42,497 nt of DNA, taken from positions 1 to 42,497 of the forward strand of contig JALWRH010000102.1 of assembly GCA_026994195.1 (NCBI GenBank). Reading direction: 5' to 3'. Numbering within the stretch: position 1 is the first letter of the stretch; each line of letters begins with the position of its first letter. The translations under genes and the position numbers were made by a program. This DNA comes from Sedimenticola sp. (lineage in GTDB: Bacteria; Pseudomonadota; Gammaproteobacteria; Chromatiales; Chromatiaceae). Below, in pieces: positions 3,805 through 39,981 of the stretch. The notes below the pieces were generated by a model. The model did not search any database and was not told the DNA's origin. It saw only the letters and a program-made list of their open reading frames with translations.

Positions 3805-3874
3805 GATGACTGCAAGTCATTGAAAACAAAGGAAGCGGAACACTGCATTTTCCGCTTCCTGTATCGAATGATAC
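3805..3874 (+). repeat. Structured intergenic element, copy 1 (three hairpins)
   Basis: Three consecutive hairpins: ATGACT-gca-AGTCAT (3806-3820); AGGAAGCGGAA paired with TTCCGCTTCCT (3830-3860, nine-base loop); and GTATC-gaat-GATAC (3861-3874). The first two align without gaps through their linker with a second copy at 39885-39947 in the same orientation. Stem differences between the copies are compensatory (A-T to G-C in the first stem, G-C to T-A in the second). It lies between suhB and the HDOD gene, ending about 77 bases before the latter. Function unknown. Confidence 0.6.
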
Positions 3875-3951
3875 GGGGAGAGACTTTTCTAAAGAATTCG
3901 TCCTGCCAGCCGACCATTCATCTGACCTCGGTATATATAAGGATGAATCCC

Positions 3952-4818
3952 ATGCAACAGCAACCTCTGGAACAACCCATCCAGGAAAGAGAACTCAGCT
4001 TTCTGCAGGATCTCACGGAAAAACTGGCTTCCCGGGAAATCGATCTGCCTCCCTTCCCCGATATCTATGCCCGCATCATCCGAACCCTGCATGACCCCGA
4101 TGTGTCCATCCAGGACATCAGCCGTATGGTGGTGGCAGCACCGGACTTATGCGTGCGCATTCTGTTGCTGGCCAATTCCGCTCTGCTCAACCGCTCTGGC
4201 GTCAAAGTTACAGACTTGAATATCGCCGTTTCCCGCCTGGGTCTGTCTGCGGTGAACAACGCTACCGTGACCCTTGCCACCAAGGATGTGTTCCAGGTCA
4301 CCAAGGGTTCCAGCCTGAGCTACATGCTCAACAAGACCCGGGTCGAATCCGTGAGAGTGGCTGCCTACAGCTACCTGCTTGCCATCAGGGCGGGCATGGC
4401 CAGTGAAAAACATGATGCCATGCTGGCCGGCCTGTTGCACAACATCGGCACCCACTACATCCTTTCCCGCGCCGAAGAATTTCCGGATCTGGTTTCCAAG
4501 GAAATCATTGATAGCTGGGGACCCGGCATCGGCCAGGCCCTGGTCAGCAATTGGGGTTTTCCGGAAAGCATCTGCTCCGCCATCGAAAAGCAGAATGAGC
4601 TGCAACTCGAATCCGAGGATGAAGAGGAGACAGAGCTGCGCGACATACTCGTGTGCGCCATCATCCTGTCCAATGTAGACAACAACGGGGAAACGCCTGG
4701 CGTGGACTACGACGAAATACCCGCCTGCCGGAAGCTGGGTATTTCCGAGGAGACTCTGCCGGGAATATTGGAAGACTACGAGGAAGAAGTGGCCTCCTTC
4801 GTATCCGCACTGCGATAG
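3952..4818 (+). CDS. HDOD-domain signalling protein
   Basis: HDOD domains are degenerate HD-type modules found in bacterial signalling and stress proteins. Here one HDOD domain fills residues about 30-230: the region begins LPPFPDIYARIIRTLHDPDVSIQDISR, continues through the AVSRLGLSAVNNATV helix and includes HDAMLAGLLHNIG, in place of a full catalytic HD site. An acidic stretch (residues about 230-240, many E and D) precedes the C-terminal helices. I chose the ATG at 3952 because AAGGA at 3939-3943 sits eight bases upstream; the ATG at 3943 overlaps that site. No GGDEF, EAL or receiver domain is fused. It stands alone, converging with the RND pump gene. Confidence 0.88.
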   Translation: MQQQPLEQPIQERELSFLQDLTEKLASREIDLPPFPDIYARIIRTLHDPDVSIQDISRMVVAAPDLCVRILLLANSALLNRSGVKVTDLNIAVSRLGLSAVNNATVTLATKDVFQVTKGSSLSYMLNKTRVESVRVAAYSYLLAIRAGMASEKHDAMLAGLLHNIGTHYILSRAEEFPDLVSKEIIDSWGPGIGQALVSNWGFPESICSAIEKQNELQLESEDEEETELRDILVCAIILSNVDNNGETPGVDYDEIPACRKLGISEETLPGILEDYEEEVASFVSALR

Positions 4819-4855
4819 TCACTGCCAGCGCATATATGCTACTGGTGATAACTGC

Positions 4856-7800
4856 TCAGTCGGCCGCTATCACGGATTGCGCCTTGTAAGCCTGTCGCCG
4901 TTCCACAAAGCCTTCATGCAGCCTTAGCAGGGAAGGCACGAGCAACAGCACCAGGAAGGTGGCAAATGCCAGGCCAAAGGAAATGGAGACCGCCATGGGG
5001 ATGAGGAACTGGGCCTGAAGGGAGGTTTCGAACAACAGGGGGGTCAGCCCGGCGATGGTGGTAAGGGAAGTAAGCAGCACCGCACGCAGGCGCTGACAGG
5101 CCGCTTCGACGATGGCCTTGTCCGTTTCCATACCCTGCTGACGCAGTTCCTTGTAGAACACCACCAGAATGATGGAGTCGTTGACCACGATACCCGACAG
5201 GCCAAAGATGCCGAACAAGGACAGAATGGTCAGCTCGATACCCATGAGCCAGTGGCCGACAATGGCGCCGACGATGCCGAAGGGAATGATGCTCATCACC
5301 ACCAGGGGCCAGCCGTAAGAACCAAACACCCAGGCCAGAACGATATAAATCATAGCCAGGGCGAACAGGGCGCCTTTCTTCATGTCGGCCATGGTTTCCT
5401 TCTGATCCTGGGCCTTGCCTGTGTAACTCATATGCACGCCCCATTTGTGCAACACCTTGGTGAACAGCTCCTTCTTTAACTGGGCACGGATGTCGTTGGC
5501 GTTGTTGCGTGAGCTGTCCACGTCAGCAAAAACTGTCGCTGAAAGTTCACCATCATAGTGACGCAGGATCTCGAATCCCTGGCGTTCCTTTAAGCGCAGG
5601 GCGGTGGTCAGGGGAATACGGCCGCCACCAGGCAGACGCAGATTCAGGGAATCCAGCCCGGACAGGTGGTAGCGGCGCTGATCCGGGAGCATGACCCGGA
5701 CTTCCAGTTCATCCCGCCCGTCGATGAAGATCTGGCTCAGATTGCCGGTGAGCGCATTTCCCAGTTGGCGAGCCACTTCCGCCTCTGTAAGGCCCTGGGC
5801 GCGGCCCATGGGCGTGAGTTCATAGATGAGCTGCTGGTGGCCGTAAGGCATGTCGTCCTCGATGCCGCTGACGCCGTCCATGCCTTCCAGCACCGTAGTA
5901 ATGGCCAGAGCGGCTTCTTTCAGCTTGTCTGTGTCTGGCCCGGTGAGCTTGATCTCCAGGTCACGCCCCGGCGGCCCCCCGCCCCGGCGTGAAGTGAGGG
6001 TCATTTTCTCCAGGCCCGGCGCATCGTCGAAATGCTTGCGCCACTCATCCAGGAACTGCTGGTTGCGCACGTCCCGCTCATCGGAAGGCACCAACTCGGC
6101 TGTGACCGTGGCGAACTGTTCCCCGGCGCGGCCGGACTGGGCATTGGAGAAAACCCCCATACCATGAGAGACCTTGGCAGTGCGGATCAGGTTGCCCCCG
6201 AGAGCCTTTTCCGCCTGATACATGGCTTTTTCCACTTTACTGATAAAGGCATCCACCCGATCCGGCGGGGTGCCGGAGACAAAGCTGGCGCTGGCATGGA
6301 TCACGTTGCCTTCCACTGTGGGGAAGAAGGTAAAGCCAATGCGCCCCCCCGCGAGCAGACCAACAGCTACAATCAGGGCGGCCAGGGCCGAGGCTATGGT
6401 CACTCCGGGACGCGCAACAGCAGCTTTCACCAGAGGACGGAACCGCCGGTCACGGAAGTGTTCGAAGCCCCTGTCCAGTTTCTGGCGCAGGGCGCCGGGC
6501 CGCTGGTGGTGCGCCTTGCGGAAACTGTGACGCAAGTGTCCCGGCAACACCAGGAAACTCTCGACCAGAGAGGCAATGATCACGCAGATGATGACAAAAG
6601 GAATATCGAACATGATGGTGCCGATGATGCCGGACACCATCATCAGAGGAATGAAGGCCGCAATGGTGGTCAGAGAAGAGGACATGACTGGCGCCAGCAT
6701 GCGCCGCGCCCCACCCTCGGCGGCTTCCAGTGAGCGCTCGCCCTTCTGGTAGTGCGCCAGGGCATCCTCGCCCACCACGATAGCATCATCCACGATGATC
6801 CCCAGGGCCATGATGAGGGCGAACAGGGAAATCATGTTGATACTGCCTCCAGCCAGCCACACCAGGGCCAGGGTGGCCATGAAGGATACAGGGATGCCCA
6901 GGGTCACCCACCAGGCCACCCGGGCATTGAGGAACAGGAACAGGATGGCCACCACCAGCACCAGACCGCTGAGACCGTTCTTCAGCAACAGGTTGATGCG
7001 GTCGCGGATAAGCAGCCAGCTTTCGTCATAGACAGTGATCTGCACACCCTTGGGAAGATCCTTGCGTGTTTCTTCCAGCCATTCCTGCAGGATGGTGGCG
7101 GATTCAAGAGTATCGCCGGTGGTGGCACGCTGGGCGCGCAGTTCCACAGCCGGCTTACCCTGGTAGGTGATGGTGATCTGGTTGGGACGGGGCCGGCGCT
7201 CGACGCTGGCCACATCACCCAGGCGCACATAATCGCCTTTCAGATTGGTCACCAGGGGCAGTTCCTCGAACCCTGCGGCGTCCCGGCGCTGTCCCAGGGT
7301 GCGCAGTTCCCGGGCCACGTCCCGCTTGCCGATCTGTCCGGCAGGCAGATCCCGGCTGATCTCGTTGATGCGCCGCCCCACTTCCGCCAGGGACAGGTTC
7401 AGGGCCTGGAGCTGGCGCTGGGGCAGCTGCACAGCGATTTCCTCTTCCGGCAGGCCGCGAATATCCACCTTGGCCACACCTTTGGCCAGCAATTCCTCCT
7501 CGAAGCGGTAAGCCAGCTTGCGCAACTCCTCCAGGTTGGAAGGACCATGAATGAGCAGACGCGCGATGGGTTCGAAGTTGATCACGTGGCTGACTTGGGG
7601 GGTCCGCGCATCCTGAGGCAGGTTACGCACGGCCTTTACCCGGGCATCCACCCGATCCGTGGCATCTCCCATATCGGTTCCCTCGGGAAACTCCAGGATG
7701 ACAACCCCCACCCCCTGCGCCGAGGTGGAGGTGATCTTGTCCAGACCCTCCACGGAACGCAGTTCCTGCTCCAGGGGAATGGTGATGGATTTCTCCACGT

Positions 7801-7996
7801 CTTCCGCTGTAGCGCCGGGCCAGACCACGCGCACCGTGACTATCTGGATATCGAACGTCGGAAAAAACTGGGTGTTCAGGGACGACAGCGCCAGGGCGCC
7901 GGACAGGAGCATGATGATCATCACCAGATTCGCCGCTACCGGGTGGCGGGCAAAAACACCGATGATGTCGTCCTTGTGGCGGAAACCATCAGTCAT
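4856..7996 (-). CDS. RND-family efflux pump inner-membrane subunit (AcrB type)
   Basis: This 1046-residue proton-driven exporter has the usual length and two-repeat layout of AcrB-type pumps: TM1 near residues 20-40, two large periplasmic loops and twelve membrane helices. The TM4 proton-relay aspartates are present in GIIVDDAIVVGED. In TM10 the segment reads GIVVNDSIILVV, so the lysine that AcrB carries there (K940 in AKNAILI) is replaced by asparagine, as in several uncharacterised COG0841 branches. The start at 7996 overlaps the membrane-fusion gene's stop by eight bases, so the two are coupled. No outer-membrane channel is adjacent; the nearest TolC-like gene is at 16281-17576. Substrate cannot be told from sequence. 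Confidence 0.93.
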   Translation of the reverse strand: MTDGFRHKDDIIGVFARHPVAANLVMIIMLLSGALALSSLNTQFFPTFDIQIVTVRVVWPGATAEDVEKSITIPLEQELRSVEGLDKITSTSAQGVGVVILEFPEGTDMGDATDRVDARVKAVRNLPQDARTPQVSHVINFEPIARLLIHGPSNLEELRKLAYRFEEELLAKGVAKVDIRGLPEEEIAVQLPQRQLQALNLSLAEVGRRINEISRDLPAGQIGKRDVARELRTLGQRRDAAGFEELPLVTNLKGDYVRLGDVASVERRPRPNQITITYQGKPAVELRAQRATTGDTLESATILQEWLEETRKDLPKGVQITVYDESWLLIRDRINLLLKNGLSGLVLVVAILFLFLNARVAWWVTLGIPVSFMATLALVWLAGGSINMISLFALIMALGIIVDDAIVVGEDALAHYQKGERSLEAAEGGARRMLAPVMSSSLTTIAAFIPLMMVSGIIGTIMFDIPFVIICVIIASLVESFLVLPGHLRHSFRKAHHQRPGALRQKLDRGFEHFRDRRFRPLVKAAVARPGVTIASALAALIVAVGLLAGGRIGFTFFPTVEGNVIHASASFVSGTPPDRVDAFISKVEKAMYQAEKALGGNLIRTAKVSHGMGVFSNAQSGRAGEQFATVTAELVPSDERDVRNQQFLDEWRKHFDDAPGLEKMTLTSRRGGGPPGRDLEIKLTGPDTDKLKEAALAITTVLEGMDGVSGIEDDMPYGHQQLIYELTPMGRAQGLTEAEVARQLGNALTGNLSQIFIDGRDELEVRVMLPDQRRYHLSGLDSLNLRLPGGGRIPLTTALRLKERQGFEILRHYDGELSATVFADVDSSRNNANDIRAQLKKELFTKVLHKWGVHMSYTGKAQDQKETMADMKKGALFALAMIYIVLAWVFGSYGWPLVVMSIIPFGIVGAIVGHWLMGIELTILSLFGIFGLSGIVVNDSIILVVFYKELRQQGMETDKAIVEAACQRLRAVLLTSLTTIAGLTPLLFETSLQAQFLIPMAVSISFGLAFATFLVLLLVPSLLRLHEGFVERRQAYKAQSVIAAD

Positions 7997-9233
7997 TCGC
8001 CACAATCTCCACCAGCAGGCTCTCTACGGCATTGGGCAACTGGGTGACCAACAGGCGCTGGCCATCCTTCAAATCGGGGGAACGGATCAACACCTGGTTG
8101 TTGCCATCCCGCCATATCTCGCCCACGCGCTGTACCTTTACCGGCCGCAGGCGGTTCTCTTCATCGATGACGTACACTTTGTCCGAGCCATACACAGCTT
8201 CGAAAGGTACGGGCACGACATTCTCCTGATCCGGCAGGGTCAGGCGCAGTTGCAGCACCCGCCCCTTTTGCAGCCAGTCCTGTCCCTCATCGATAAGGAA
8301 CAAAGCTTCTATGCCGCCGCTGCCCTGGCGCACTTCAGCGCCCAGGGAGATCAGATGACCTTCCACCTTGCGCTGATCCACACTGCCGGAAACCTTCAAT
8401 GCATTGCCATCAGCCAGTGCCTGGCGCACCTGGGGCACATAGATGGCAGGGAGCATGGCGCGGAACATGAGACTGTCGTTCTCAAACATGTCCAGGAGTT
8501 TCCCCCCTACGTTCACCCGGTGTCCCTGAGCCACATAGACCCGGGTCACGCGGCCATCAAAGGGCGCGACGATGCGGGTTCGCCGAAGTTGCAGGTGTGC
8601 CTTGTCCAGAGCTGCCTCGGCCCGCGCCAGGGTCGCCTCCAGTTCCTGCATGCGCGATTCATGGGTGCGGATGCTCTCTTCGATACGGGCAATGCTGATG
8701 GCCTGGCGGGCGGCGCTCTGGCGCGCCGTGTCCAGGGCCGACTGGGAGCTAACCTGCTTTTTGCTCAGGTTCAGCAGGCGCTTTACCTCCGCCTGCACCA
8801 GCTGATAGAGCTTGCGCTCACTGGGCAGAGCCTGGAGATCCGCCTGGTGACGGGATTCCTGGGCGGCAATGGCGGCTTTCGCCTTGGCCACATCAGCCTC
8901 CGCCAGCTGCACGTCCAGGCGGGCGTCGGCATCATCCAGTTCCAGCAGCAGATCACCGCTGCTCACCTGGCTGCCTTCGATGACATGTACCTTCTGCACA
9001 TCCGCGGACAGGGCTGCAGTGATCACCGAGTAGTTGAGCGCGTCCACTGCACCGTACAGCAGAATGTTGGTGGGCCAACTGCCCAGCTGTACATCCTGGG
9101 CCGCCACCGGCCAGGATTTTTCCTTCACCTCGATGGATTTGCTGTGGGGGCGGCTGGCCTTGAGCATCATGAAGACACCCACAGCCAGAACAATGATGAG
9201 CAGGGGCAAAAAGAGCCTGCGGAATCTTTTCAT
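7989..9233 (-). CDS. RND efflux membrane-fusion (periplasmic adaptor) protein
   Basis: The 414-residue adaptor links the RND pump to an outer-membrane channel. An N-terminal membrane anchor (residues about 5-24) without a lipoprotein cysteine is followed by a lipoyl half-motif (VHVIEGSQVSSGDLLLELD), a long alpha hairpin (residues about 105-195, rich in A, E, K, Q and R), the returning half-motif RIVAPFDGRVTRVYVAQGH, and beta-barrel and membrane-proximal domains. It lies immediately upstream of the RND gene with an eight-base overlap and downstream of an MFS gene on the same strand. Confidence 0.9.
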   Translation of the reverse strand: MKRFRRLFLPLLIIVLAVGVFMMLKASRPHSKSIEVKEKSWPVAAQDVQLGSWPTNILLYGAVDALNYSVITAALSADVQKVHVIEGSQVSSGDLLLELDDADARLDVQLAEADVAKAKAAIAAQESRHQADLQALPSERKLYQLVQAEVKRLLNLSKKQVSSQSALDTARQSAARQAISIARIEESIRTHESRMQELEATLARAEAALDKAHLQLRRTRIVAPFDGRVTRVYVAQGHRVNVGGKLLDMFENDSLMFRAMLPAIYVPQVRQALADGNALKVSGSVDQRKVEGHLISLGAEVRQGSGGIEALFLIDEGQDWLQKGRVLQLRLTLPDQENVVPVPFEAVYGSDKVYVIDEENRLRPVKVQRVGEIWRDGNNQVLIRSPDLKDGQRLLVTQLPNAVESLLVEIVAND

Positions 9234-9319
9234 ATTGGTTCTTCGGTTTTGTCTGAATCCCAGGAATCTGGCCGGTCAATAGCGTTGAATCCGACAGACT
9301 CCCAGCACCCAGGTTGTTA

Positions 9320-10474
9320 TCAGTTTGCCGGAGATGCCTCCTCGACTTTCCCAACAGGTATATGGCGCCACACCACCCAGGCGCCCAGCAAAGCCGTGGC
9401 GGACGCCATAGTATAAGCCAAAGGTGCCCCCCACTGCTCCCAAATCACGCCACTGATGAAAGTACCCAAAGCCCCTCCGGCACCGAAGCTCAGACTGGCG
9501 TACAAAGCCTGTCCCCGGCCCTGATGCCGCCCGCGAAAATAATCATGCACCATGTGGATGGCTGAAGCATGAAAACTGCCAAAACTGGCAGCATGCAACA
9601 GTTGTGCGACTACCAGCACCGGCACTACCTCAGGAAACCAGCCAATGAGGAGCCAGCGCAGGGCGGCCAACATCAGGCTCACACGCAATATGGCCGCAGA
9701 GCGCCAGCGCCGCAACAACCGGTGCATGAACAGGAACAACAGTACTTCGGCAATGACGCCTATGCTCCACAGCAGGCCAATATCACTCTTGCTGTAGGCA
9801 TAGTCCTGGAGGTAAATGGAAAAAAACGCATAGTAGGGACCATGGCTCATCTGCATCAGAAACACGGCGGCAAAAAAAGCAAGAATATGAGGCTTCTTCA
9901 GCACCGCCAGTATGGATGGCTGGGCCTCATGCGCTTCATGGCCATCCTCCTTCACCAGCAGACTGGACAACAGGATACCCCCGAATACAGTAATCAAGGC
10001 CGGCAACACCACGGCAGTTCCCCGCCTGTCTACCAGCCACCCCACCATCACAACCGTGAGGATAAAGCCCACGGAGCCCCACAGGCGCAGGCGGGAATAA
10101 CGCGCGGCATCATTTCCCAGGTGATTGAAGACCACGGCTTCGAACTGCGGCAGGGACGCATTCCAAAAAAAGCTATAGAAAGCCATCACCAGCGCAACCT
10201 GAAGGAAGCCCTGGGCAGCAAACATGCCCAGCAGGGAAACAAGGGCCAGAAGGGAAGCCAGGCGCACCAGCAGCATACGATGTCCCAGGTTGTCCCCCAG
10301 CCAACCCCAGACATTGGGCGCCACCACCTTGGTCGCCATGATAATGGCCATCAGCGAACCGATGGAAAAGGCATCGAAACCCATAGCTTGCAGGTACAAC
10401 CCCCAATAAGGCATGAGGGTGCCCAGGGCGGCAAAATAGAAGAAATAGAAGGCGGACAGGCGCCAGTAGGGCAT
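9320..10474 (-). CDS. MFS transporter, HcaT/nucleoside-H+ symporter-like
   Basis: A 384-residue protein with about twelve hydrophobic helices. It starts YWRLSAFYFFYFAALGTLMPYWGLYLQ, a pattern typical of the HcaT/LacY-like (MFS_1_like) group, and carries the loop-2 signature variant GDNLGHRMLLVR. The 86-base gap to the membrane-fusion gene on the same strand makes cotranscription with the RND pump possible. The substrate is unknown; HcaT homologues are annotated as aromatic acid transporters, but that should not be carried over. Its start faces the DUF1800 gene across 147 bases. Confidence 0.88.
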   Translation of the reverse strand: MPYWRLSAFYFFYFAALGTLMPYWGLYLQAMGFDAFSIGSLMAIIMATKVVAPNVWGWLGDNLGHRMLLVRLASLLALVSLLGMFAAQGFLQVALVMAFYSFFWNASLPQFEAVVFNHLGNDAARYSRLRLWGSVGFILTVVMVGWLVDRRGTAVVLPALITVFGGILLSSLLVKEDGHEAHEAQPSILAVLKKPHILAFFAAVFLMQMSHGPYYAFFSIYLQDYAYSKSDIGLLWSIGVIAEVLLFLFMHRLLRRWRSAAILRVSLMLAALRWLLIGWFPEVVPVLVVAQLLHAASFGSFHASAIHMVHDYFRGRHQGRGQALYASLSFGAGGALGTFISGVIWEQWGAPLAYTMASATALLGAWVVWRHIPVGKVEEASPAN

Positions 10475-10621
10475 GACGGACAGAAAGCAGCAGGAAAAGG
10501 CCTCATTCTATACGCCTGCCCCAGCGCCTGCTATGAAAACCCTTTCTGAGAAGATCATCACGGATGCAAAGCCCACCGTCTTCTACAGTAATAATCCTGA
10601 ATGGGCACTTGACAGCATTTC

Positions 10622-12400: not shown

Positions 12401-12407
12401 GGACACT

Positions 12408-15000: not shown

Positions 15001-15019
15001 CCGGCAACCGCAAGCACCT

Positions 15020-15111: not shown

Positions 15112-15180
15112 CGTAGGTCGGGCTTCAGTCCGACAAAACAGCTGCCACGCCCGGACAATGTCGGACGAAAGTCCAACCTG
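15112..15180. repeat. REP-like palindrome pair (forward then reverse)
   Basis: 15112-15134 reads CGTAGGTCGGGCTTCAGTCC followed by GAC, itself a small palindrome. 15160-15180 is a degenerate reverse-complement copy (GTCGGACGAAAGTCCAACCT). The same unit recurs in inverted pairs at 38362-38411 and 39774-39832. It sits between the operon terminator and the end of aroC. Confidence 0.65.
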
Positions 15181-31074: not shown

Positions 31075-31098
31075 CCCTCCCCCGTTCACGGGGGAGGG
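31075..31098. repeat. GC-rich palindrome after the solute-binding protein
   Basis: CCCTCCCCCG pairs with CGGGGGAGGG around TTCA, ten base pairs, 31 bases after the stop. TTTTT comes about 12 bases later, so it may assist termination. A similar C/G-rich palindrome set lies at 35304-35366. Confidence 0.55.
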
Positions 31099-31176
31099 AG
31101 ATTTGGGAAGTTTTTCCATATTAGCGCTGGTGGGACTGAAGTCTGATCTGCCCAGCATATCGGAACTGCAGGCTGT

Positions 31177-32589: not shown

Positions 32590-33878
32590 GACTGGTGAGA
32601 TTCCTGTAGCTTTTGCCGCACAAAATCGATATGCAAGCGCAGGTGGTAAAGCTGATAGGCAAACGACAAGGGCACCACAACGTCGCGCACCTCGCGTTCA
32701 AGCTCATCCAGTTTATCAAGATAGACCTGTTTCTCCTGGGTGGATGCCTTGAGGATGTTCCGATCCACTTCCTGCAATTCCTCGTACCAGCGGTAAATAC
32801 GCGCCCGCATGCGCCAGCGGTACAGAGGCGGCACAACTCTGAACAATGGTAATAACAACCCCAGGAGGGGCAGGATCATGATCTTGGTGCGGTCCAGCAG
32901 GGAAGCCGCCCAGAATGGCAGAAAACGCTGCAGGAATGGCGGACCATCCCGGTAAAAGCGTTCCGCTTCCGCGCTCAGGGGGAAGCTGATATGCCGGGGA
33001 CTGGGAAACTCCCCCTCCCCGCTGAACCAACCAGCATCACGATGCACCTTGTCCAGAACCTGCATCATCAGCGCAACGATGGCCGGGTGCAGATCTTCCT
33101 GTATGACCAGTTCCGAGGTTGCTGCCAGCAGATGGATGTCTTTGGACGGGATATTGACCGCCAGATCTTCCGCGCCTTCAGGCAAGGTGAGCTCCACCAG
33201 GAAAGGATGCCGCCGCGCATAGGCTGTCGCCCGTTGAATGTTTACCAGCTTGACCTGGGGATCATGGAGCAGGGAAGCCACCCGTTCGCTCTTGGGCGAT
33301 GCGACAAAAAACGCCACGTCGATACTGCCCTCATGCAGGCGTCGCGCCGCTTCCCCGGAATCCAGGGAAAGCCGCTGCGCACCATCCAGAGGAATCTGAT
33401 TCTCCTGCAACAGCAATTCCACCAGCGCCCGGGTTCCCGACCCCTCGGGGCCAATGGCCAGGCGCAGACCTTTCAGATCCGTGAGCCTGTCGATGTCCAG
33501 ATCCGATCTCTGAAACACCCAAAGGGGTTCATAGTACAAACTGCCCAGGCTTTCGAGGCGCGTGCCCACCTGCCCAGGCTTTGCCACGCCCCCCTGTACG
33601 AAAGCCATGTCCACCCGGCCTTCCGACAACAGCCGCAGATTATCCACAGAACCATGGGTATCCACGATCTCCAGGGTGATGCCCTGCCTGGCCAGGAGTT
33701 TCTGGTAGCGTCGCGCAAACGCATCGTATGCGCCCCCCGGTTCACCGCTGGCCATGAGAATATGGTCTGGTGGAGCAGGTTTTATATACTGGTAAGCTAG
33801 CATAAAACCGATCAGCACCAGCAGTACAAGAGGCCCATAGACCGCCAGCAGTTCCTTCCAACCCTGATTAGTTTTCAT
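32586..33878 (-). CDS. Membrane-anchored TAXI-family solute-binding protein
   Basis: A 430-residue protein with a TAXI-type (TRAP-associated extracytoplasmic immunogenic) binding domain at residues about 38-310: HILMASGEPGGAYDAFARRY, SVDNLRLLSEGRVDMAFVQ, LKGLRLAIGPEGSGTRAL. Unlike free binding proteins it has an N-terminal membrane helix (about 13-30), a second helix (about 332-350, IMILPLLGLLLPLF), and a basic, coiled-coil-rich tail (about 355-430) expected in the cytoplasm. No TRAP permease is adjacent; the one at 41564 is of the DctM class. The topology suggests signalling or scaffolding rather than uptake (inference). It overlaps pabB by 11 bases and pyk by four. Confidence 0.9.
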   Translation of the reverse strand: MKTNQGWKELLAVYGPLVLLVLIGFMLAYQYIKPAPPDHILMASGEPGGAYDAFARRYQKLLARQGITLEIVDTHGSVDNLRLLSEGRVDMAFVQGGVAKPGQVGTRLESLGSLYYEPLWVFQRSDLDIDRLTDLKGLRLAIGPEGSGTRALVELLLQENQIPLDGAQRLSLDSGEAARRLHEGSIDVAFFVASPKSERVASLLHDPQVKLVNIQRATAYARRHPFLVELTLPEGAEDLAVNIPSKDIHLLAATSELVIQEDLHPAIVALMMQVLDKVHRDAGWFSGEGEFPSPRHISFPLSAEAERFYRDGPPFLQRFLPFWAASLLDRTKIMILPLLGLLLPLFRVVPPLYRWRMRARIYRWYEELQEVDRNILKASTQEKQVYLDKLDELEREVRDVVVPLSFAYQLYHLRLHIDFVRQKLQESHQS

Positions 33879-35250
33879 AGCTCAGCGCCTGCGCTTCTTT
33901 ATTGAACAGTTTGAAGAGTGCCGCCGCCTTGTCCAGGCTCTCCTGGTACTCCTCATCCAGACGGGAATCCGCCACGATGCCGCCACCGGCATGATACACC
34001 GCCCGCCCCCCGCTCAGCTGCAGGGTGCGTATGGCAATACTGGTGTCCATGTTGCCCTGGCTGTCTATCCAGCCGATACTGCCACAGTATATATCCCTGG
34101 GCCCGGCTTCCAGTTCCTGGATGATCTCCATGGCCCGCCGTTTGGGCGCCCCGGTTATGGACCCTCCGGGAAAACAGGCGGCCAGCAGGCTCAAGGCGTC
34201 TTCCCCGTCAGCCAGCTTGCCCGTCACCGTACTCACCAGATGATGGACCGTGGGATAGGATTCCACTTTGAACAGTTCTGGCACCTGAATGCTTCCCGGC
34301 TCACATACCCGCCCCAGATCATTGCGCATGAGGTCCACGATCATCAGGTTTTCCGCCCGATCCTTGGCGCTTTGAGTCAGCGCCCTGGCCAGGATCCGAT
34401 CCTGTTCCGGGGTGGCGCCCCGGGGCCGCGTGCCCTTGATGGGACGGGTTCGCACCCGGCCTTTGTTCACCCTGAGAAACTGTTCCGGCGAAGAGCTCAG
34501 GATGCTGGCGAAAGGCAATTCCAGTAGTGCGCCGTAAGGTGCGGGATTCTGTTCCCGCATGGCGAGATATAAAGCGAAGGGGTCACCCTCGAAAGACAGG
34601 GAAAAGCGCTGGGCGTAGTTCACCTGGTAGCAGTCACCTTCGCGCAGATAGTGCTGAATACGGCGAAAGGCCCGGGCATAGTCGCCTGGGGACGACTGGG
34701 CGCTGATGCCTTTGGCGCCAGGCTGAAAGATGTCAGGGGGGTCGGTCTGGGCGGCGGATTCCAAGGCTTGGACGAGGCCTTTGGGGATTCGACCAAGATC
34801 CCCGGAAAGCCAGGACTCGCGGGTTTGCAGATCATGCACCAGCACCCAGTCATAGAGCCCCAGGGCCACCTCGGGAAGCTCCCCCGTTACTGGCTCCAAC
34901 GTCTGCAGACGGCGCCCCAGATCATAGGAAAAGTAGCCCATAGCGCCACCGCCAAATGGCGGTGGAGCGGTATCTGTTCTGCTTTCCACCAGCAGTTCCC
35001 TGACAAGCGGCAACACAGGCTCCCGGCTGTGGCGGATACGTCCATCCCGGTATTCCAGAACCGTTGATCCTCCCTGACAGGTCAGACGCACCCGGGGATC
35101 TGCGGACAGAATATGGTAACGCCCGCCCTGGGTCAGATACTCGCCACTGCCACTGTCCAGCCAGCAGGGCCAGGGCAGCCGGCGCAAGACCTGATAGAAA
35201 CGGGGAATGTCTGGAGGAGCGGACAGCAAACAGGTAGGCATAGGGCGCAT
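33868..35250 (-). CDS. pabB: Aminodeoxychorismate synthase component I
   Basis: PabB forms 4-amino-4-deoxychorismate from chorismate with ammonia from PabA, on the way to folate. The 460 residues have the anthranilate-synthase component I N-domain (to about 165) and the chorismate-binding domain. The binding-domain motifs are GDCYQVNYAQRFS, RPIKGTRPRG (the catalytic lysine of PabB rather than the alanine of TrpE), DLMRNDLGRVCEPGS, and FPGGSITGAPKRRAMEIIQE. The C-terminus is normal and no aminotransferase PabC is fused. It heads the operon with the TAXI-like protein and pyk. The start could also be at 35241 (MPTCLL). Confidence 0.94.
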   Translation of the reverse strand: MRPMPTCLLSAPPDIPRFYQVLRRLPWPCWLDSGSGEYLTQGGRYHILSADPRVRLTCQGGSTVLEYRDGRIRHSREPVLPLVRELLVESRTDTAPPPFGGGAMGYFSYDLGRRLQTLEPVTGELPEVALGLYDWVLVHDLQTRESWLSGDLGRIPKGLVQALESAAQTDPPDIFQPGAKGISAQSSPGDYARAFRRIQHYLREGDCYQVNYAQRFSLSFEGDPFALYLAMREQNPAPYGALLELPFASILSSSPEQFLRVNKGRVRTRPIKGTRPRGATPEQDRILARALTQSAKDRAENLMIVDLMRNDLGRVCEPGSIQVPELFKVESYPTVHHLVSTVTGKLADGEDALSLLAACFPGGSITGAPKRRAMEIIQELEAGPRDIYCGSIGWIDSQGNMDTSIAIRTLQLSGGRAVYHAGGGIVADSRLDEEYQESLDKAAALFKLFNKEAQALSYEN

Positions 35251-35303
35251 TTTACCCTATTGCCCACATCCTTGATGATGAAAGGAAACCACCCCTCAGT
35301 CCT

Positions 35304-35366
35304 CTCTCCCCTCGGGGAGAGGGGACATATGAACCTCCCCAACCCACCCCCGCGTGCGGGGAGGGG
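35304..35366. repeat. GC-rich palindrome set
   Basis: CTCTCCCC-tc-GGGGAGAG (35304-35321) is followed by a second palindrome, CCCCGC-gt-GCGGGG (35348-35361), enclosed by CCTCCCC and GGGGAGGGG. It lies between divergent and convergent ends upstream of pabB and resembles the palindrome at 31075-31098. Probably a dispersed intergenic repeat. Confidence 0.55.
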
Positions 35367-35395
35367 AAACTGGGATTACGCTTTCATATCATAAG

Positions 35396-35421
35396 GAAAA
35401 AGCGGCGCCGTCCCTGGCGCC
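35396..35421 (-). terminator. Rho-independent terminator of the propeller-SLH gene
   Basis: On the minus strand GGCGCC (35421-35416) pairs with GGCGCC (35409-35404) across a six-base loop, followed by GCTTTTT. It lies ten bases after the stop at 35431. Confidence 0.7.
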
Positions 35422-35430
35422 AAGGGTGGC

Positions 35431-37635
35431 TCACTTGTTCAGCAGATTGAAGGCGCGCGTCAGGAACACCGCCATGGCATCTCTCCGCACAGGATCATCC
35501 GGGCAGTAGTTGCTGGCATCGCATCCGGAAGTGATGCCTTCCGTGGCCAGCTGCTCGATCCAGGCAGCGGCCCAGTGATCCTGGGGCACGTCAGCAAACA
35601 TGGTGCCCGTGGCCGGGGGCGGTGAATAGCCGGACCCATGCTCGGAACGCAGCAGGAATACAGCCATCTGATCCCGGTTGACCGTACCGGAAGGACAATA
35701 GTTCCCGCCTCCACAACCCGCAGTGATGCCATCAGCATTCAGGCCCTCGATCCAGGCAGCAGCCCAATGGCTGGCGGGCACATCGGCAAAAACCGTACCC
35801 GTAGCCGCAGGCGGCATGTAGTCACTGCCATGGATGCCGCGTTCCAGGAACACCGCCATGGCATCCCGCCGGACATCATCACCCGGGCAATAGTTGCTGG
35901 CATCACAGCCGGATGTGATGCCGCTGTCCGCCAGCGCCTGTATCCAGGTGTAGGCCCAGTAGCCTAGGGGAACATCCGCAAACAGGGGATCATTGTTCTG
36001 GTTGGTTACGGGAAGGTCCTGGATGGTCCGGGTGTCATAGATAGGGTCACTGGAACTGATGGTGAATTGGATGCTGTAAGCCTGGTCACCATCATCATCG
36101 TTGTCTTCGACACCAGTGATGGTGACGGTCTGGGGGGTATTCCAGGTTCCCGGCGTGAACACCAGAGTAGAAGGAGATACCTGTCCTTCCTGGAGATTGC
36201 TGGAACTTATCTGTATGGTTACGTCCCCCGTGGGTTCATCCTCCAGCACCACGTCGAAAGTGGCGCTGCCGCCGGCCTCTGTGGTCACCAGGCTGCCATT
36301 GGGCGTGATGGCCACGCTGGGGACACGCATGACGAAAGTGGCCATATCCCAGTCCGTGGCGTTTTTCAGCCCGCCCGTGAAGGCGATACGATCCTCCTGA
36401 ATATGCACCCCGACAGCCATGCTTTCGGTGGTTCCGGTAATCAGCTGCTCCCGCAGCAGGGCCCCTGTATCCGCATCCAGGCGCTCCAGGCGGGCGTGCA
36501 TGAGGCCGGTGGTTTCATCCGTGACCCTGCCGACCACGATGAGAGTATCGGTGACCGGATCCCAGACCAGGTCATTGGGAACAGCATCGGCACCAGAGGT
36601 CAGACCGTCATAGGTTCGGGTCCAGAGACGCACCGCGCCGCCGCTGCCGTCACCGCCGGCCGCGTACTTGATAACCACCCACTGATAGTGATGATTGTCG
36701 CCGTTGTCCGTCCCTGTGTTCAGCGCGCCCGCCACATACACATCATTGCTGGCGTCCGTGGTCACCTTGCCCGCCCAATCATACAGGCCATTGCCGTCCA
36801 GGGTGTCGGACCACAGCAGGGTGGAGCCGCTGGCGTCGTACTTGCGTACATGCCAGTCCAGGTTATTCTGGGAAATGCCAATCCGCCCTGTGGCAATCAG
36901 GTTGCCGGCGCTGTCGATGGCCGCGCCAAAGGCCATATCAGCATACAGGTAATCCGATGAATAATCGTAGTACAGGGGAAAACCGCTGGCCACAGTACCC
37001 GAGGCATCATGCAGGTACATGACCCAGTCATGTTCCCCATTATTCCATCCATGAAAGGCATCCCCGGCGCTGAACACATTGCCCGCATCATCCACATCCA
37101 GGGCATAGGCCGCGTTCCAGGCGCTGCTGGAAGAACCCTCCAGCTTATAGTCCCAGTTGATGGTCTGCCCATCCGGGGACAGGCTCATGATCCAGAAGGC
37201 ACTGATGTATTGCGGAGAAGCGGCCCAGCTGCCATCCCACTTGCCCGCCAGCACGACACGGTCGTCCGGATCCACCCGCAAGGCATAAAAACGCTCCCTG
37301 GAGTCACATTTCTGGATGTTGCAGTTGGTTCCCTCCACGTCTCCTGAATCATACTCCTGGCGCCAGAGCTCATTGCCATCCGGGTCATACTTGAGGACCA
37401 GGGCATTGTCATTGTATGGCGTACCGGTCTGGGGCGCATCCACGTTCCCCGCGATCACTACATTTCCCTGGCTGTCGAAGGCTACGCCGTAAGCCAGGTC
37501 ATTCTTGTCATCGCCACCGTTGCTGTCCAGGAGTTGCTGCCAGACATCAATGCCTACGACACCCACACCCTGGGAAAAGGCCAAGGGTGCCGCCGTCAAC
37601 AACCCTGCCAATATCGCCCATTGCTTTCGTTTCAT
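35431..37635 (-). CDS. Secreted beta-propeller / Calx-beta-like protein with three SLH-like repeats
   Basis: A 734-residue secreted protein with a Sec signal peptide (residues 1-21, ending AFS). Residues about 40-430 carry SBBP-like propeller repeats (AYGVAFDSQGNVVIAGN, YALDVDDAGNVFSAGD, AAIDSAGNLIATGR). Residues about 435-540 form a Calx-beta-like sandwich (EAGGSATFDVVLEDEPTGD). Three SLH-like repeats begin at 551, 616 and 680, each with G-C, a YCP and VxR plus MAVFL. They are close relatives of the repeats in the protein at 13708-15000, including the same linker (GSxYxPPxATGT). A GGAG ribosome site sits seven bases before the ATG at 37635. Role unknown; likely a surface or outer-membrane-associated protein. 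Confidence 0.88.
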   Translation of the reverse strand: MKRKQWAILAGLLTAAPLAFSQGVGVVGIDVWQQLLDSNGGDDKNDLAYGVAFDSQGNVVIAGNVDAPQTGTPYNDNALVLKYDPDGNELWRQEYDSGDVEGTNCNIQKCDSRERFYALRVDPDDRVVLAGKWDGSWAASPQYISAFWIMSLSPDGQTINWDYKLEGSSSSAWNAAYALDVDDAGNVFSAGDAFHGWNNGEHDWVMYLHDASGTVASGFPLYYDYSSDYLYADMAFGAAIDSAGNLIATGRIGISQNNLDWHVRKYDASGSTLLWSDTLDGNGLYDWAGKVTTDASNDVYVAGALNTGTDNGDNHHYQWVVIKYAAGGDGSGGAVRLWTRTYDGLTSGADAVPNDLVWDPVTDTLIVVGRVTDETTGLMHARLERLDADTGALLREQLITGTTESMAVGVHIQEDRIAFTGGLKNATDWDMATFVMRVPSVAITPNGSLVTTEAGGSATFDVVLEDEPTGDVTIQISSSNLQEGQVSPSTLVFTPGTWNTPQTVTITGVEDNDDDGDQAYSIQFTISSSDPIYDTRTIQDLPVTNQNNDPLFADVPLGYWAYTWIQALADSGITSGCDASNYCPGDDVRRDAMAVFLERGIHGSDYMPPAATGTVFADVPASHWAAAWIEGLNADGITAGCGGGNYCPSGTVNRDQMAVFLLRSEHGSGYSPPPATGTMFADVPQDHWAAAWIEQLATEGITSGCDASNYCPDDPVRRDAMAVFLTRAFNLLNK

Positions 37636-37755
37636 GATGATTCTCCTCTCATTTTGGGGTTCTTCGTGGGAAATAAACGAAAACCGGAGGAAAAAGAGCT
37701 CATCATTTTTTCTTCCGCTGGGAAAACCAGCGAAAAGGGTGTTACGGAGATCGGT

Positions 37756-38340
37756 TCAAGACAGGTCGTTCACCAGGGACCGAGCCACGGGGGCCGGAAT
37801 AGAAGGCAGTTCCACCGAGAGTTCCGGATGGTCCATACCTGCAGCAATAGGTGCCCCATTCTTTGCCGCATCCACCATTGCCGGACTGAGCTCAAAACGC
37901 AGAAAATGTACGCTGGATGTTTTTTCTTCGGTGCTGCGTTCCAGATCTTCGTTGGCGACAGGATAGACTTTGTCCAGGTCGCCGACCCGCACCCAGGTCT
38001 TTTCTTCGACGCCCACAAGGCGGGCGAGCATGCGCTTACGCTCCTCCACGTCCGGGTACTCGATCATGAAGGTGGCTTTCCAGTTACTGCCGTCTGGAAT
38101 CAAGGGGTTGTAGGCGTCCAGCTCCTCCTGGATGCCCGCCGCGTCGAAGATCTTTTCGATGCGCAGCATTTCCTGAATCTGGTACTGCATGGTCAGGCGA
38201 TCCTCGAAATACAGGGCCGCATGATCGTTCAGGCGCACAAGGCGGTTTTTCTTGTGTTCCATGACCCGTTTGCGGAATTCGGGGCGGGCCTGGTCGTATT
38301 CCTCCAGGCTCATGAGGTCCTGGCGTGTCAGTTTGTTCAT
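37756..38340 (-). CDS. DUF3501 family protein
   Basis: A 194-residue cytosolic protein. It begins MNKLTRQDLMSLEEYDQARP and contains RVMEHKKNRLVRLNDHAALYFEDRLTMQ, followed by WKATFMIEYPDVEERKR and SVHFLRFELSP, the layout of DUF3501 proteins. The family has no established biochemical function. It is downstream of the Fe-S protein (76 bases, holding an inverted REP-like pair) and of rubrerythrin on the same strand. I recall these families being neighbours in other proteobacterial genomes, which hints at a shared role in peroxide or redox stress. Confidence 0.87.
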   Translation of the reverse strand: MNKLTRQDLMSLEEYDQARPEFRKRVMEHKKNRLVRLNDHAALYFEDRLTMQYQIQEMLRIEKIFDAAGIQEELDAYNPLIPDGSNWKATFMIEYPDVEERKRMLARLVGVEEKTWVRVGDLDKVYPVANEDLERSTEEKTSSVHFLRFELSPAMVDAAKNGAPIAAGMDHPELSVELPSIPAPVARSLVNDLS

Positions 38341-38361
38341 TGCTTTACTCCTGCTGAGATT

Positions 38362-38411
38362 GTTGGACTGAGGTCCAACCTACAGACTCGTAGGTTGGGC
38401 TTCAGCCCGAC
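38362..38411. repeat. REP-like palindrome pair (reverse then forward)
   Basis: GTTGGACTGAGGTCCAACCT (from 38362) and GTAGGTTGGGCTTCAGCCCG (from 38390) are oppositely oriented copies of the REP-like unit, separated by about seven bases. The pair sits inside the Fe-S protein/DUF3501 operon gap, so it would be transcribed and could fold into a large hairpin. Confidence 0.7.
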
Positions 38412-38416
38412 AAGAT

Positions 38417-39745
38417 TCAGATACCGTAAGCCTTGCGCAACAAGCGCAGGGGATGCTCGGCCTCCTGACCATTGTCCAGGGCATGGGCGATATGATGCCC
38501 CGCCATGACGCAGTCGCTGGTCAGGTGATCCGGCTGGAACTGTTCCACCTTGCGCGCCACAGGGCGCACCAGTTTCATGGAGATGGCATGGAACTCCTTC
38601 TTCACCGCATAGGTGCCGTCATGGCCGGAACAGCGCTCGATGGCCTGCATTTCGGTGTCCGGCACCAGTTGCAGCAGCTCCCGGGTCTTGTTGCCGATGC
38701 GCTGCACCCGCTGGTGACAGGCCACGTGATAGGACACCTTGCCCAGGGAGTGCTTGAAATCCGTGTTCAGCTTGCCGTGTTTGTGACGCAGCATCAGGTA
38801 TTCGAAGGGATCGTAGACATGATCCCGTACTTTGAGCACGTCTTCATCCTCAGGAAACATCAGGGGCAGTTCCTGCTTGAACATGAGCACGCAGGACGGG
38901 ATGGGCGCCACGATATCCCAACCATTTTCTATCATCGCTGCCAGCGCCGGAATATTGACTTCCTTTGCCTCTGCAACTGCTTCCAGGTCACCCAGTTCCA
39001 GCTTGGGCATGCCGCAGCAGCGTTCTTTCTCCGCGATGGTCACGGGAATACCGTTGTGCTCGAACACGGCCGCCAGATCCTCACCGATATCCGGCTGGTT
39101 GTTGTTGCCATAGCAGGTGGCGAACAGGGCCACCTTACCCGTGGTCGGGCCGGCAGCTTCTCCACGGGCATCGGGCTTGGGCCGGATGCGCTTGCGCAGG
39201 GACTTGCTGGTGTACTTGGGGATCACAGCGTCCTGATCCACGCCCAGGGTCTTTTCCAGCAGCTTGCGGAATCCACCGTTGGCGTTCATGGCGTTCACCA
39301 CGCCGGCGACGATGGGAATGCCTGCCAGCTTTGGCACGGTATCCGTGGCGGACAGAATCTTGTCCCGGGTTCTGGCGCCGTGATTCTTGAAATGCACCGC
39401 CTTGGCCTGGAGCATCAGGTGAGGAAAATCGATGTTCCACTCGTGGGGCGGCACATAGGGGCATTTGGTGAGAAAGCAAAGATCACAGAGATAACAGTGA
39501 TCCACGACTTTCCAGTAATCTTTTTTATCCACGCCATCGACTTCCATGGTGTCGGACTCGTCCACCAGGTCGAACAGCGTAGGAAAGGCATTACAGAGGC
39601 TGACGCAGCGGCGGCAGCCGTGGCAGACGTCGAACACGCGCTCCATTTCCGTGAGCAGTTTTTCCTCGCTATAGAAATCAGGATTCTTCCAGTCCACAGG
39701 GTGCCGGGTGGGCGCCTCCAGACTGCCTTCACGTTTTTCGCTCAT
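38417..39745 (-). CDS. HdrD/GlpC-like (Fe-S)-binding oxidoreductase
   Basis: A 442-residue protein with two N-terminal [4Fe-4S] motifs and C-terminal cysteine-rich (CCG-type) domains, as in GlpC and heterodisulfide reductase subunit D. Cluster cysteines: C41, C44, C47, C51 (CHGCRRCVSLC), then C84, C87, C90 and C95 (CYLCDLCFLTKCP), the last with four rather than three residues between cysteines. The first CCG domain has FATCYGNN and ERCCGMPKL; the second has HVACHQR and ERCSGHDG, where CCG has become CSG. The start at 39745 has GGAGA just upstream; the longer frame lies in repeat DNA. Its electron partner is not known; rubrerythrin upstream is a candidate (inference). Confidence 0.92.
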   Translation of the reverse strand: MSEKREGSLEAPTRHPVDWKNPDFYSEEKLLTEMERVFDVCHGCRRCVSLCNAFPTLFDLVDESDTMEVDGVDKKDYWKVVDHCYLCDLCFLTKCPYVPPHEWNIDFPHLMLQAKAVHFKNHGARTRDKILSATDTVPKLAGIPIVAGVVNAMNANGGFRKLLEKTLGVDQDAVIPKYTSKSLRKRIRPKPDARGEAAGPTTGKVALFATCYGNNNQPDIGEDLAAVFEHNGIPVTIAEKERCCGMPKLELGDLEAVAEAKEVNIPALAAMIENGWDIVAPIPSCVLMFKQELPLMFPEDEDVLKVRDHVYDPFEYLMLRHKHGKLNTDFKHSLGKVSYHVACHQRVQRIGNKTRELLQLVPDTEMQAIERCSGHDGTYAVKKEFHAISMKLVRPVARKVEQFQPDHLTSDCVMAGHHIAHALDNGQEAEHPLRLLRKAYGI

Positions 39746-39773
39746 CTGCTGTCTCCTCGAAATGCTGGATTTT

Positions 39774-39832
39774 GTAGGTTGGACTTCAGTCCAACCAAAG
39801 GCGACCGATTGTCGGGCTGAAGCCCGACCTAC
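39774..39832. repeat. REP-like palindrome pair (forward then reverse)
   Basis: GTAGGTTGGACTTCAGTCCA (from 39774) and its reverse-type partner GTCGGGCTGAAGCCCGACCT (from 39811) form an inverted pair. Each unit is also a small palindrome. It begins the run of hairpins between the Fe-S protein and rubrerythrin. Confidence 0.7.
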
Positions 39833-39841
39833 GCGGAAGGG

Positions 39842-39884
39842 TGTCGCAAAAGGCGACAGCCGCCGCGATGCAGGGATGCATCGC
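39842..39884. repeat. Two hairpins in the rubrerythrin/Fe-S protein gap
   Basis: TGTCGC-aaaag-GCGACA (39842-39858) and GCGATGCA-ggga-TGCATCGC (39865-39884) are perfect hairpins. They lie directly between the REP-like pair and the structured element copy 2. Confidence 0.6.
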
Positions 39885-39981
39885 CATTTTCGATGGCTGT
39901 AAGCCATTGAAAATGGAGGAATCGGAAAATCGCATTTTTCCGATTCCGAGTCGTAAAAGTCCAGGGATGGGCTTTTACGAC
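39885..39981 (+). repeat. Structured intergenic element, copy 2 (three hairpins)
   Basis: Hairpins: CATTTTC plus ATGGCT pairing with AGCCAT plus GAAAATG (39885-39915); GGAATCGGAAAA pairing with TTTTCCGATTCC (39918-39947); GTCGTAAAAG pairing with CTTTTACGAC (39950-39981). The first two match copy 1 at 3805-3860 without gaps across the linker, with paired substitutions that keep the stems. It reads in the plus direction while the surrounding genes are on the minus strand. Confidence 0.65.

What the first reader, a model, noticed from the sequence alone, without database searches (positions are those of the whole stretch)
3805..39981. Homologous three-hairpin elements with compensatory stem changes
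Seen directly: the segments 3805-3860 and 39892-39947 align through two stems and their linker (AGYCATTGAAAA, then AGGAA and CGG), about 36 kb apart and in the same orientation. Stem 1 changes A-T to G-C (3809/3817 versus 39896/39904) and stem 2 changes G-C to T-A (3835/3855 versus 39922/39943), so pairing is kept while sequence changes. The third hairpin differs in sequence but is present in both. This suggests selection on a DNA or RNA structure: a non-autonomous repeat mobilised by a REP-type transposase, or a small structured RNA. I do not recognise a named family.
Basis: partly seen in the sequence, partly recalled or inferred. Interest (0 to 1): 0.72.

Follow-up and report, generated by a model that had tools for sequence, protein, structure and literature searches.

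The report
Mobile element carrying CsrA-type RNA hairpins
The two look-alike hairpin stretches belong to a widespread family of short jumping DNA elements in gammaproteobacteria that borrow other transposons' enzymes and appear to carry small RNA hairpins shaped like the binding sites of a global bacterial regulator, CsrA/RsmA; the RNA role is predicted from sequence only.

Summary
Both stretches and their compensated pairs are present, and the repeat recurs in this genome and in 66 of 370 sampled gammaproteobacterial genomes. The full element (window 39836-39988; 3797-3860 is a decayed copy) has five hairpins, H0 to H4, in 151-161 nt.

It is a MITE. It has terminal inverted repeats and target-site duplications: 4 bp, mostly YTAR, for end types A (24/42) and D (16/21), and 3 bp for type B (12/20). 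IS5-family elements with matching ends lie in some of the same genomes. So it is not REP/RAYT-type.

The unexpected part is the core. Stems diverge between lineages but stay paired, while H1 and H4 loops keep GGA (54/61 and 52/62; H0, H2 and H3 1-5 of 61-62). H1 reads CANGGANG, the CsrA/RsmA hairpin motif, in 53 of 62 lineages. Stem mismatches favour G.T over A.C on this strand (35:11), which fits selection on RNA or single-stranded DNA. Rfam's best match to this copy, below threshold, is RsmW, an RsmA-binding sRNA.

Best reading: a MITE that carries an Rsm/Csr-type RNA. Binding and transcription are untested.

The parts
39836..39988 (+). Full-length five-hairpin MITE, end type B (copy 2)
   Evidence: Ends placed by TIR match; folds at -87.1 kcal/mol into five hairpins. 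The right end has decayed and no TSD is left at this copy (flanks CGCG/TGGG).
39836..39852 (+). Left terminal inverted repeat, type B (GAAGGGTGTCGCAAAAG)
   Evidence: Pattern match with 1 mismatch
39839..39861 (+). Hairpin H0 (left TIR hairpin, no GGA loop)
39865..39884 (+). Hairpin H1, hexaloop AGGGAT at 39872-39877 (CAGGGATG: CsrA/RsmA-type motif CANGGANG)
   Evidence: fold; conservation; ANGGAN and RUACARGGAUGU from passages of PMC3791407 and PMC3856055
39885..39915 (+).
39918..39947 (+).
39948..39984 (+). Hairpin H4 (right TIR hairpin, loop CAGGGATG at 39962-39969)
39859..39989 (+). Sub-threshold full-length match to Rfam RsmW (RF02809), 43.4 bits against a gathering score of 52, E 1.7e-6 for 151 bases searched
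   Evidence: not reported when the same copy was searched within 37 kb (L029)
3797..3860 (+). Decayed copy 1: only H2 (3803-3823) and H3 (3830-3860) recognisable; TIRs, H0, H1 and H4 not recognisable
   Evidence: BLAST match 3788-3859, 79%; fold
3861..3874 (+).
   Evidence: comparison of copies

Best explanation
[quoted passage not shown] IS5-type DDE transposases move it in trans, by its terminal inverted repeats, with a 4-bp YTAR duplication for end types A and D. Another transposase, not identified, moves type B, with a 3-bp duplication. Between its ends it carries a conserved core of hairpins that works, when transcribed from the + strand, as a CsrA/RsmA-binding RNA. The apical GGA loops of H1 and H4 would bind a CsrA/RsmA dimer, so transcripts that contain the element act as local CsrA sites or, added over dozens of copies, as a sponge. 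Shown computationally: the MITE anatomy, TSDs, IS elements with matching ends, five-hairpin architecture, covariation, conserved loops, and strand bias of stem mismatches. Inferred: transcription, CsrA/RsmA binding, and any benefit to the element.
For: MITE: TSD match A 24/42 (permutations within the type: mean 6.2, maximum 13 of 1000), D 16/21 (4.2, maximum 10), B at 3 bp 12/20 (1.4, maximum 5). Over all 84 copies with two ends, exact 4-bp matches are 41 against a within-genome permutation mean of 13.2, maximum 22 of 2000. Other lengths and offsets give 0-2 per type. IS elements with matching ends: G302 L194 (type D, TSD ATAA), G006 L206 (type A, TSD TTAA), G393 L207 (type A, no TSD seen), G007 L202 (type C left end). 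L206, L194 and the readable part of L202 are NCBIfam transpos_IS5_4, above its cut-off. L207 is known only by Pfam DDE_Tnp_1. RNA core: with hairpins found by structure alone, loops (with closing pair) holding GGA are H1 54/61 and H4 52/62, against H0 1/62, H2 5/61, H3 2/62; TCC occurs in 0 and 1 of the H1 and H4 loops. H4 was not in the model used to fetch copies. CANGGANG in H1 53/62. H1 pairs, aligned on GGA only: the six outer pairs are Watson-Crick in 43-51 of 53 distinct rows, above every one of 2000 shuffles. Stem mismatches G.T:A.C = 35:11 distinct contexts (p 5e-4), and 20:6 for H0/H4 alone (p 0.009). RsmW is the top Rfam match of the window copy. The only RsmW match in the own genome at E up to 1 is an element copy (80 of 1053 candidates scored). 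csrA is present in 63 of 66 element genomes against 261 of 304 others (cross-tabulated by hand; Fisher p 0.038).
Against: No expression or binding data. Private mutations of individual copies are strand-symmetric (G.T 59, A.C 57), and copies show no orientation bias to neighbouring genes (20 against 25), so single insertions do not look maintained as RNAs. The loop evidence has weaker sides: in H4 the strict CANGGANG is in only 24 of 62 (CA(N)GGA in 42), and in a wider 12-nt apex window TCC is also in 21 of 57 H4 (GGA 48 of 57). RsmW is below its gathering score (43.4 against 52). The same window copy gives no RsmW match when searched within 37 kb under stricter filters (L029 among 13 loci). 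13 of 20 element genomes have no RsmW match at E up to 1, and 3 of 10 genomes without the element have one at E 0.2-0.9. Only 2 of 20 short element loci match it at E up to 1, and the third own subfamily does not. Palindrome-rich DNA also gives sub-threshold matches to unrelated families (sX4 6.9e-5, AS-pc01 1.4e-4, gyrA 1.6e-4). No IS with type B ends was found. The own genome, a draft, has no DUF772 or DDE_Tnp_1 match, so its copies may be immobile now.
Confidence: 0.6

Rival explanations
1. A MITE whose core hairpins act only as DNA. Extruded or single-stranded hairpins help transposition, or shape the ends at replication, and the GGA loops are a protein site on single-stranded DNA.
For: TSDs and TIRs show DNA transposition; private mutations are strand-symmetric; no gene-orientation bias; G.T is also the better-tolerated mismatch in single-stranded DNA (general knowledge).
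Against: The core is kept across four end types and two TSD lengths, so it is not tied to one transposase. GGA loops occur in H4 but not in H0, although both hairpins are built from the TIRs. The loop motif is that of an RNA-binding protein.
Confidence: 0.2
2. A plain MITE with palindromes perfected by template switching during replication. Covariation is then mutational and the loops are relics of ancestry.
For: Both-side-changed pairs that still pair also occur among copies of one genome (13 kept, 4 not); long palindromes are prone to such correction (general knowledge).
Against: Among private changes, one-sided ones dominate (159 one-sided against 17 two-sided). Correction would be strand-symmetric, but lineage-level mismatches are 35:11 G.T:A.C. 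H1 and H4 loops keep GGA while stems turn over. Stems change less than unpaired sites in 7 of 7 groups.
Confidence: 0.12
3. REP/REPIN-type palindromes moved by a REP-associated tyrosine (Y1) transposase.
For: Short intergenic palindromes in many copies; GTAG-type REP-like palindromes do exist in the same window.
Against: Target-site duplications and inverted ends shared with DDE-type IS elements. No transposase stood out among the 25 largest ORF clusters around 105 loci, judged by eye; RAYT genes were not searched for.
Confidence: 0.03

Closest known systems
IS5-family MITEs (non-autonomous derivatives of IS5-type insertion sequences)
   Same: Short, no coding capacity, TIRs like those of IS5-family elements in some of the same genomes, 4-bp YTAR duplications, many mostly intergenic copies
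   Different: The body is not an internal deletion of the IS but a structured core shared by elements with unrelated ends, one type with 3-bp duplications, and found in more than one class
RsmW sRNA of Pseudomonas aeruginosa (Rfam RF02809)
   Same: In the Rfam consensus, consecutive hairpins with GGA in the loops of the first and the last; full-length alignment at 43.4 bits. RsmW binds RsmA with Kd 11.5 nM (PMC4950607, abstract and passages seen)
   Different: RsmW is described there as an sRNA processed from the PA4570 3'-UTR; the element is multicopy and mobile, and scores below the RsmW gathering threshold
CsrB/CsrC and RsmX/Y/Z sponge RNAs
   Same: Repeated hairpins with GGA in the loop; tandem arrays of the element in genome G052 hold 10 loop GGAs in a 900-nt stretch (predicted fold)
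   Different: CsrB and CsrC are genes regulated through BarA/UvrY (PMC3856055 passages), rsmX is in several copies in some Pseudomonas (PMC4950607 passage); here transposition spreads the units and no promoter has been shown
REP/REPIN elements with RAYT transposases
   Same: Palindromic, intergenic, multicopy
   Different: TSDs, inverted ends and five different hairpins

Membership tests
MITE (IS5-type) | Short, non-coding, multicopy | tested here: met
   151-161 nt in the three main types; 33 BLAST matches in the own genome, some of them partial or reverse-strand palindrome matches
MITE (IS5-type) | Terminal inverted repeats | tested here: met
   84 of 115 copies with both ends recognised at 70% or more; 31 dropped
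MITE (IS5-type) | Target-site duplication of fixed length | tested here: met
   4 bp in A 24/42 and D 16/21; type B 3 bp in 12/20. Type B therefore fits another transposase. Type C was not counted
MITE (IS5-type) | Autonomous IS with the same ends in the genome | tested here: met
   4 of 24 transposase loci examined, out of 30 fetched (L194, L206, L207, L202); two more have ends only partly like type D (L212, L201). None in the window's own genome and none for type B (6 genomes searched, 10 stretches read)
MITE (IS5-type) | Mobilised by that transposase | not testable with these tools
   Needs an experiment
Csr/Rsm sponge RNA | ANGGA/CAGGA in loops of short hairpins | tested here: met
   GGA in the loop: H1 54/61, H4 52/62; the longer A.GGA/CAGGA 52/61 and 29/62
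Csr/Rsm sponge RNA | Binds CsrA/RsmA | not testable with these tools
   -
Csr/Rsm sponge RNA | Transcribed | not testable with these tools
   No RNA data held
RsmW (RF02809) | Reaches the Rfam gathering score (52 bits) | tested here: not met
   43.4 bits; no match over the cut-off in 30 or in 370 genomes
REP/RAYT | No TSD; hairpin mobilised by a Y1 transposase | tested here: not met
   TSDs present; the RAYT gene itself was not searched for

The most novel reading that the evidence does not exclude
A family of parasitic DNA elements, widespread in gammaproteobacteria and present beyond them, carries a CsrA/RsmA-binding RNA as its only cargo. It keeps this RNA core while exchanging its ends to match whatever IS5-like or other transposases are at hand, so it is a mobile CsrA sponge, and Rsm-type sRNAs such as RsmW may be domesticated or ancestral relatives of it.
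Probability: 0.4. Interest if true: 0.9.

Novelty: new variant of a known kind. Interest (0 to 1): 0.78.

Why it matters
MITEs are usually regarded as empty DNA between inverted repeats. A MITE core whose stems covary and whose loops keep a regulator's binding motif across many families and more than one bacterial class would mean that a non-coding parasite carries a functional RNA cargo, and that CsrA/RsmA sites can be spread through genomes by transposition. It would offer a direct route for the origin of new Rsm sRNAs and for rewiring of post-transcriptional control, and it is testable with one in vitro binding assay.

Tried and rejected
Rfam at gathering scores: no match in the window and none in 20 element loci apart from a tRNA. 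REP/RAYT: rejected on TSDs. A neighbouring autonomous gene: ORF clustering around 105 loci; of the 25 clusters printed, judged by eye, the large ones seem to be ORFs running through the repeat and the small ones often the same locus fetched twice; none was followed further. Composite transposon on contig C15 (left half at 1127, right half at 5082): the ORFs between look ordinary, so I take these for two decayed half copies. Cis-regulation of neighbours: no orientation bias (20 against 25 of 45 tandem cases); of 115 copies, 24 lay between convergent and 21 between divergent genes, 18 were called inside an ORF by a crude ORF caller and 7 lay at contig edges. Named plasmid and phage relatives: no match to a type D consensus and only a 22-nt end match of type A in two Paraburkholderia plasmids. 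Type B partner IS: not found in the 6 genomes searched and 10 stretches read.

Rows left out of counts and known biases: 31 of 115 copies without two recognisable ends. The 100 fetched copies are high-ranking matches, not a random draw, and the end motifs were set from copies already seen. Groups under 5 copies were left out. In 3 of 7 groups the GGA columns include a linker GGA between H2 and H3. One search uses one copy per genome, usually the best-scoring one, for 49 lineages, two of them own subfamilies; four were turned round by hand; related lineages are not independent, and shuffles ignore relatedness. Some weak model matches (L337 and L338) do not look like the element.
Full report
What was claimed and what is there. 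Both are present and the named pairs are right. The window is contig C102 of a 3.0-Mb draft genome. The H2 core pattern occurs at 18 places in the own genome, 17 of them distinct, against 0 for the reversed control.

Anatomy. Alignment of the own copies shows an element of five hairpins. H0 and H4 are built from the terminal inverted repeats; H1, H2 and H3 form the core. Copy 2 in the window is full length (39836-39988) and copy 1 is a remnant of H2 and H3. The genome holds two main subfamilies, A (161 nt) and B (153 nt), whose H0, H1, H3 and H4 stems differ but still pair. A third, 165-nt five-hairpin element shares the B ends (C33). No Rfam family reaches its gathering score on the element.

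Distribution. A covariance model of H1-H3 (R1) matches 26 of 55 genomes, the own one included, at E up to 0.01, with up to 75 matches in one genome (matches may include reverse-strand ones). It matches 66 of 370 gammaproteobacterial genomes (53 of 273 genera) at E up to 0.001 and 17 of 397 in a phylum draw. Only 12 and 11 candidates per genome were scored in those two draws, so copy numbers there are lower bounds. Of the 17, 12 lie outside the class; I read 7 of these 12 (L326, L327, L328, L330, L331, L333, L335), and six show the same hairpin order with quite different stems, while L327 is only partly like it. Two weak in-class matches do not look like the element (L337, L338). Some genomes hold tandem arrays of H1-H4 with a spacing of about 124 nt (L305, L307).

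It is a MITE. I took 115 copies (100 high-ranking ones fetched own); 84 had both ends recognisable. The ends fall into types A, B, C and D. Duplications: type A 4 bp in 24 of 42, type D 4 bp in 16 of 21, type B 3 bp in 12 of 20, far above permutations and at one length each; over all 84, 41 exact 4-bp matches against at most 22 in 2000 within-genome permutations. The 4-bp duplications are TTAA, TTAG, CTAG or CTAA in 35 of 41, i.e. YTAR, which I recall as the target of the IS5 group. Of 30 transposase loci fetched I examined 24; four have ends matching a MITE type: L194 in G302 (D), L206 in G006 (A), L207 in G393 (A) and L202 in G007 (C), the last interrupted by a copy of the element. L206, L194 and the readable part of L202 belong to NCBIfam transpos_IS5_4. 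The own genome has no DDE_Tnp_1 or DUF772 match. No partner was found for type B. The REP-type transposase reading is therefore not supported.

The core is under selection as a single strand. Four results bear on this. First, covariation: with H1 copies aligned only by their GGA (57 of 62 lineages, 53 distinct rows), the six outer pairs are Watson-Crick in 43-51 of 53 rows, more than in any of 2000 shuffles; the two innermost are not. For H3, 5 of 8 pairs exceed all shuffles. For H4, whose stem length varies, 4 of 8 do. Second, within genomes stems change more slowly than unpaired sites in 7 of 7 groups (pooled 214/7347 against 93/1457 for unpaired sites other than GGA loops). Third, over 49 lineages, one copy each, stem mismatches are G.T in 35 and A.C in 11 distinct contexts (p 5e-4); for H0 and H4, which were not in the search model, 20 and 6 (p 0.009) (raw counts 70 and 16). 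Such a bias is expected if the + strand folds as RNA or single-stranded DNA. Fourth, against a role of each insertion, private changes are symmetric, G.T 59 and A.C 57 over 60 copies, and copies have no orientation bias to genes (20 against 25). I read this as selection on the spreading lineage, not on individual insertions.

The loops point to CsrA/RsmA. With hairpins found by pairing alone in 62 lineages, the loop with its closing pair holds GGA in 54 of 61 H1 and 52 of 62 H4, but in only 1 of 62 H0, 5 of 61 H2 and 2 of 62 H3; the reverse strand's TCC is in 0 and 1 of the H1 and H4 loops. An earlier, cruder count with 12-nt apex windows gave GGA in 32 of 35 H1 and 48 of 57 H4, but there TCC was also in 21 of 57 H4. 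H4 was not part of the model that fetched the copies, so its count is not circular; H1 was, and its count may be inflated. H1 reads CANGGANG in 53 of 62 and the stricter ACARGGATGT in 18 of 62; H4 reads CA(N)GGA in 42 and CANGGANG in 24 of 62. The SELEX consensus for CsrA is RUACARGGAUGU (PMC3856055, passages), and RsmN/RsmA bind an ANGGAN loop, AAGGAU in RsmZ-2 (PMC3791407, passages). Loop GGA positions also change less than other unpaired sites within genomes (23/582 against 93/1457, p 0.034). csrA is found in 324 of 370 genomes; cross-tabulated by hand it is in 63 of the 66 element genomes and in 261 of the 304 others (missing in G115, G141 and G209, all fragmented drafts); this is weak and confounded.

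RsmW. Searched in a short stretch, the window copy's best match in all of Rfam is RsmW (RF02809), 43.4 bits against a gathering score of 52, E 1.7e-6, full length, with both GGA loops aligned (alike). In the own genome the single RsmW match at E up to 1 is an element copy (C83, 41.5 bits), and it is the best match in a 370-genome draw in which 9 candidates per genome were scored. Two matches in G052 come at E 0.0014 and 0.009; the first lies in an element array, the second was not checked. Limits: the same window copy, searched as L029 among 13 loci of 37 kb under stricter filters, is not reported, nor is RsmW in any other of those 13. 13 of 20 element genomes have no RsmW match, and 3 of 10 genomes without the element have one at E 0.2-0.9. 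Among 20 short element loci two match RsmW (43.4 and 36.3 bits) and eight match parts of RsmV weakly (E 0.04-0.8). The third own subfamily does not match, one G054 match at E 0.0015 is not an element, and hairpin-rich DNA gives matches to unrelated families down to 7e-5. So RsmW is a lead to homology or convergence, not a family assignment. RsmW is reported to bind RsmA with Kd 11.5 nM and to come from the PA4570 3'-UTR (PMC4950607, abstract and passages).

Mechanism proposed. Shown: transposition with fixed duplications, IS5-family elements with matching ends for types A, C and D, and a conserved five-hairpin single-strand structure with GGA loops. Inferred: the + strand is transcribed by read-through from neighbours; H1 and H4 bind CsrA/RsmA; many copies together titrate it or place nearby genes under its control; and the element gains by this. 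Confidence 0.6 for the whole, about 0.95 for MITE, about 0.75 for single-strand selection.

Literature. Searches of the open PMC set, judged from listings, titles and starts of abstracts, showed no paper that joins MITEs with CsrA/RsmA or describes this element; the one paper holding both 'CsrA' and 'miniature inverted-repeat' is the Rfam 12.0 update (listing only, not opened). That set lacks most subscription journals. The Thiomargarita MITE paper (PMC4853749, passages) describes other MITEs, with a 10-bp direct repeat or TATAG ends.

Noticed in passing
window 15113-15134, 38390-38411, 39774-39795, 39811-39832: Four GTAG-type REP-like palindromes (GTAGGTYGGRCTTCAGYCCRAC); one own element copy (L008) is fused to such a palindrome.
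   Followed up: no
window 35446-35922: Three direct repeats at 192-nt spacing (60-83% alike) inside the ORF 35431-37635, probably a repeated protein domain.
   Followed up: no
L307 (G052:C1:12451-16534), L305, L382: Tandem arrays of the H1-H4 unit (about 124-nt period in L305 and L307), one beside a tRNA gene, with 10 GGA loops in a 900-nt stretch: CsrB-like in layout.
   Followed up: partly
H3 apex in most lineages (window 39926-39938): The H3 apex AAA-YCRCR-TTT is also strongly conserved and I know no binder for it; the H2 loop tends to GYAAG.
   Followed up: no
L049 (C15:1127 and 5082), L051 (C93), L050 (C49), L053 (C41), L052 (C95): Half copies: two left halves stop at the same base in H2 (CATTTTCGATG) and right halves begin near H3, as if breakage recurs at the H2 palindrome.
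   Followed up: partly
L202 (G007:C70): A complete type C element sits inside the transposase gene of an IS5-type element whose left end matches the element's own ends.
   Followed up: no
L106, L398, L372: Sub-threshold Rfam matches to the gyrA RNA motif over H3-H4 in three lineages; probably chance likeness of two hairpins.
   Followed up: no
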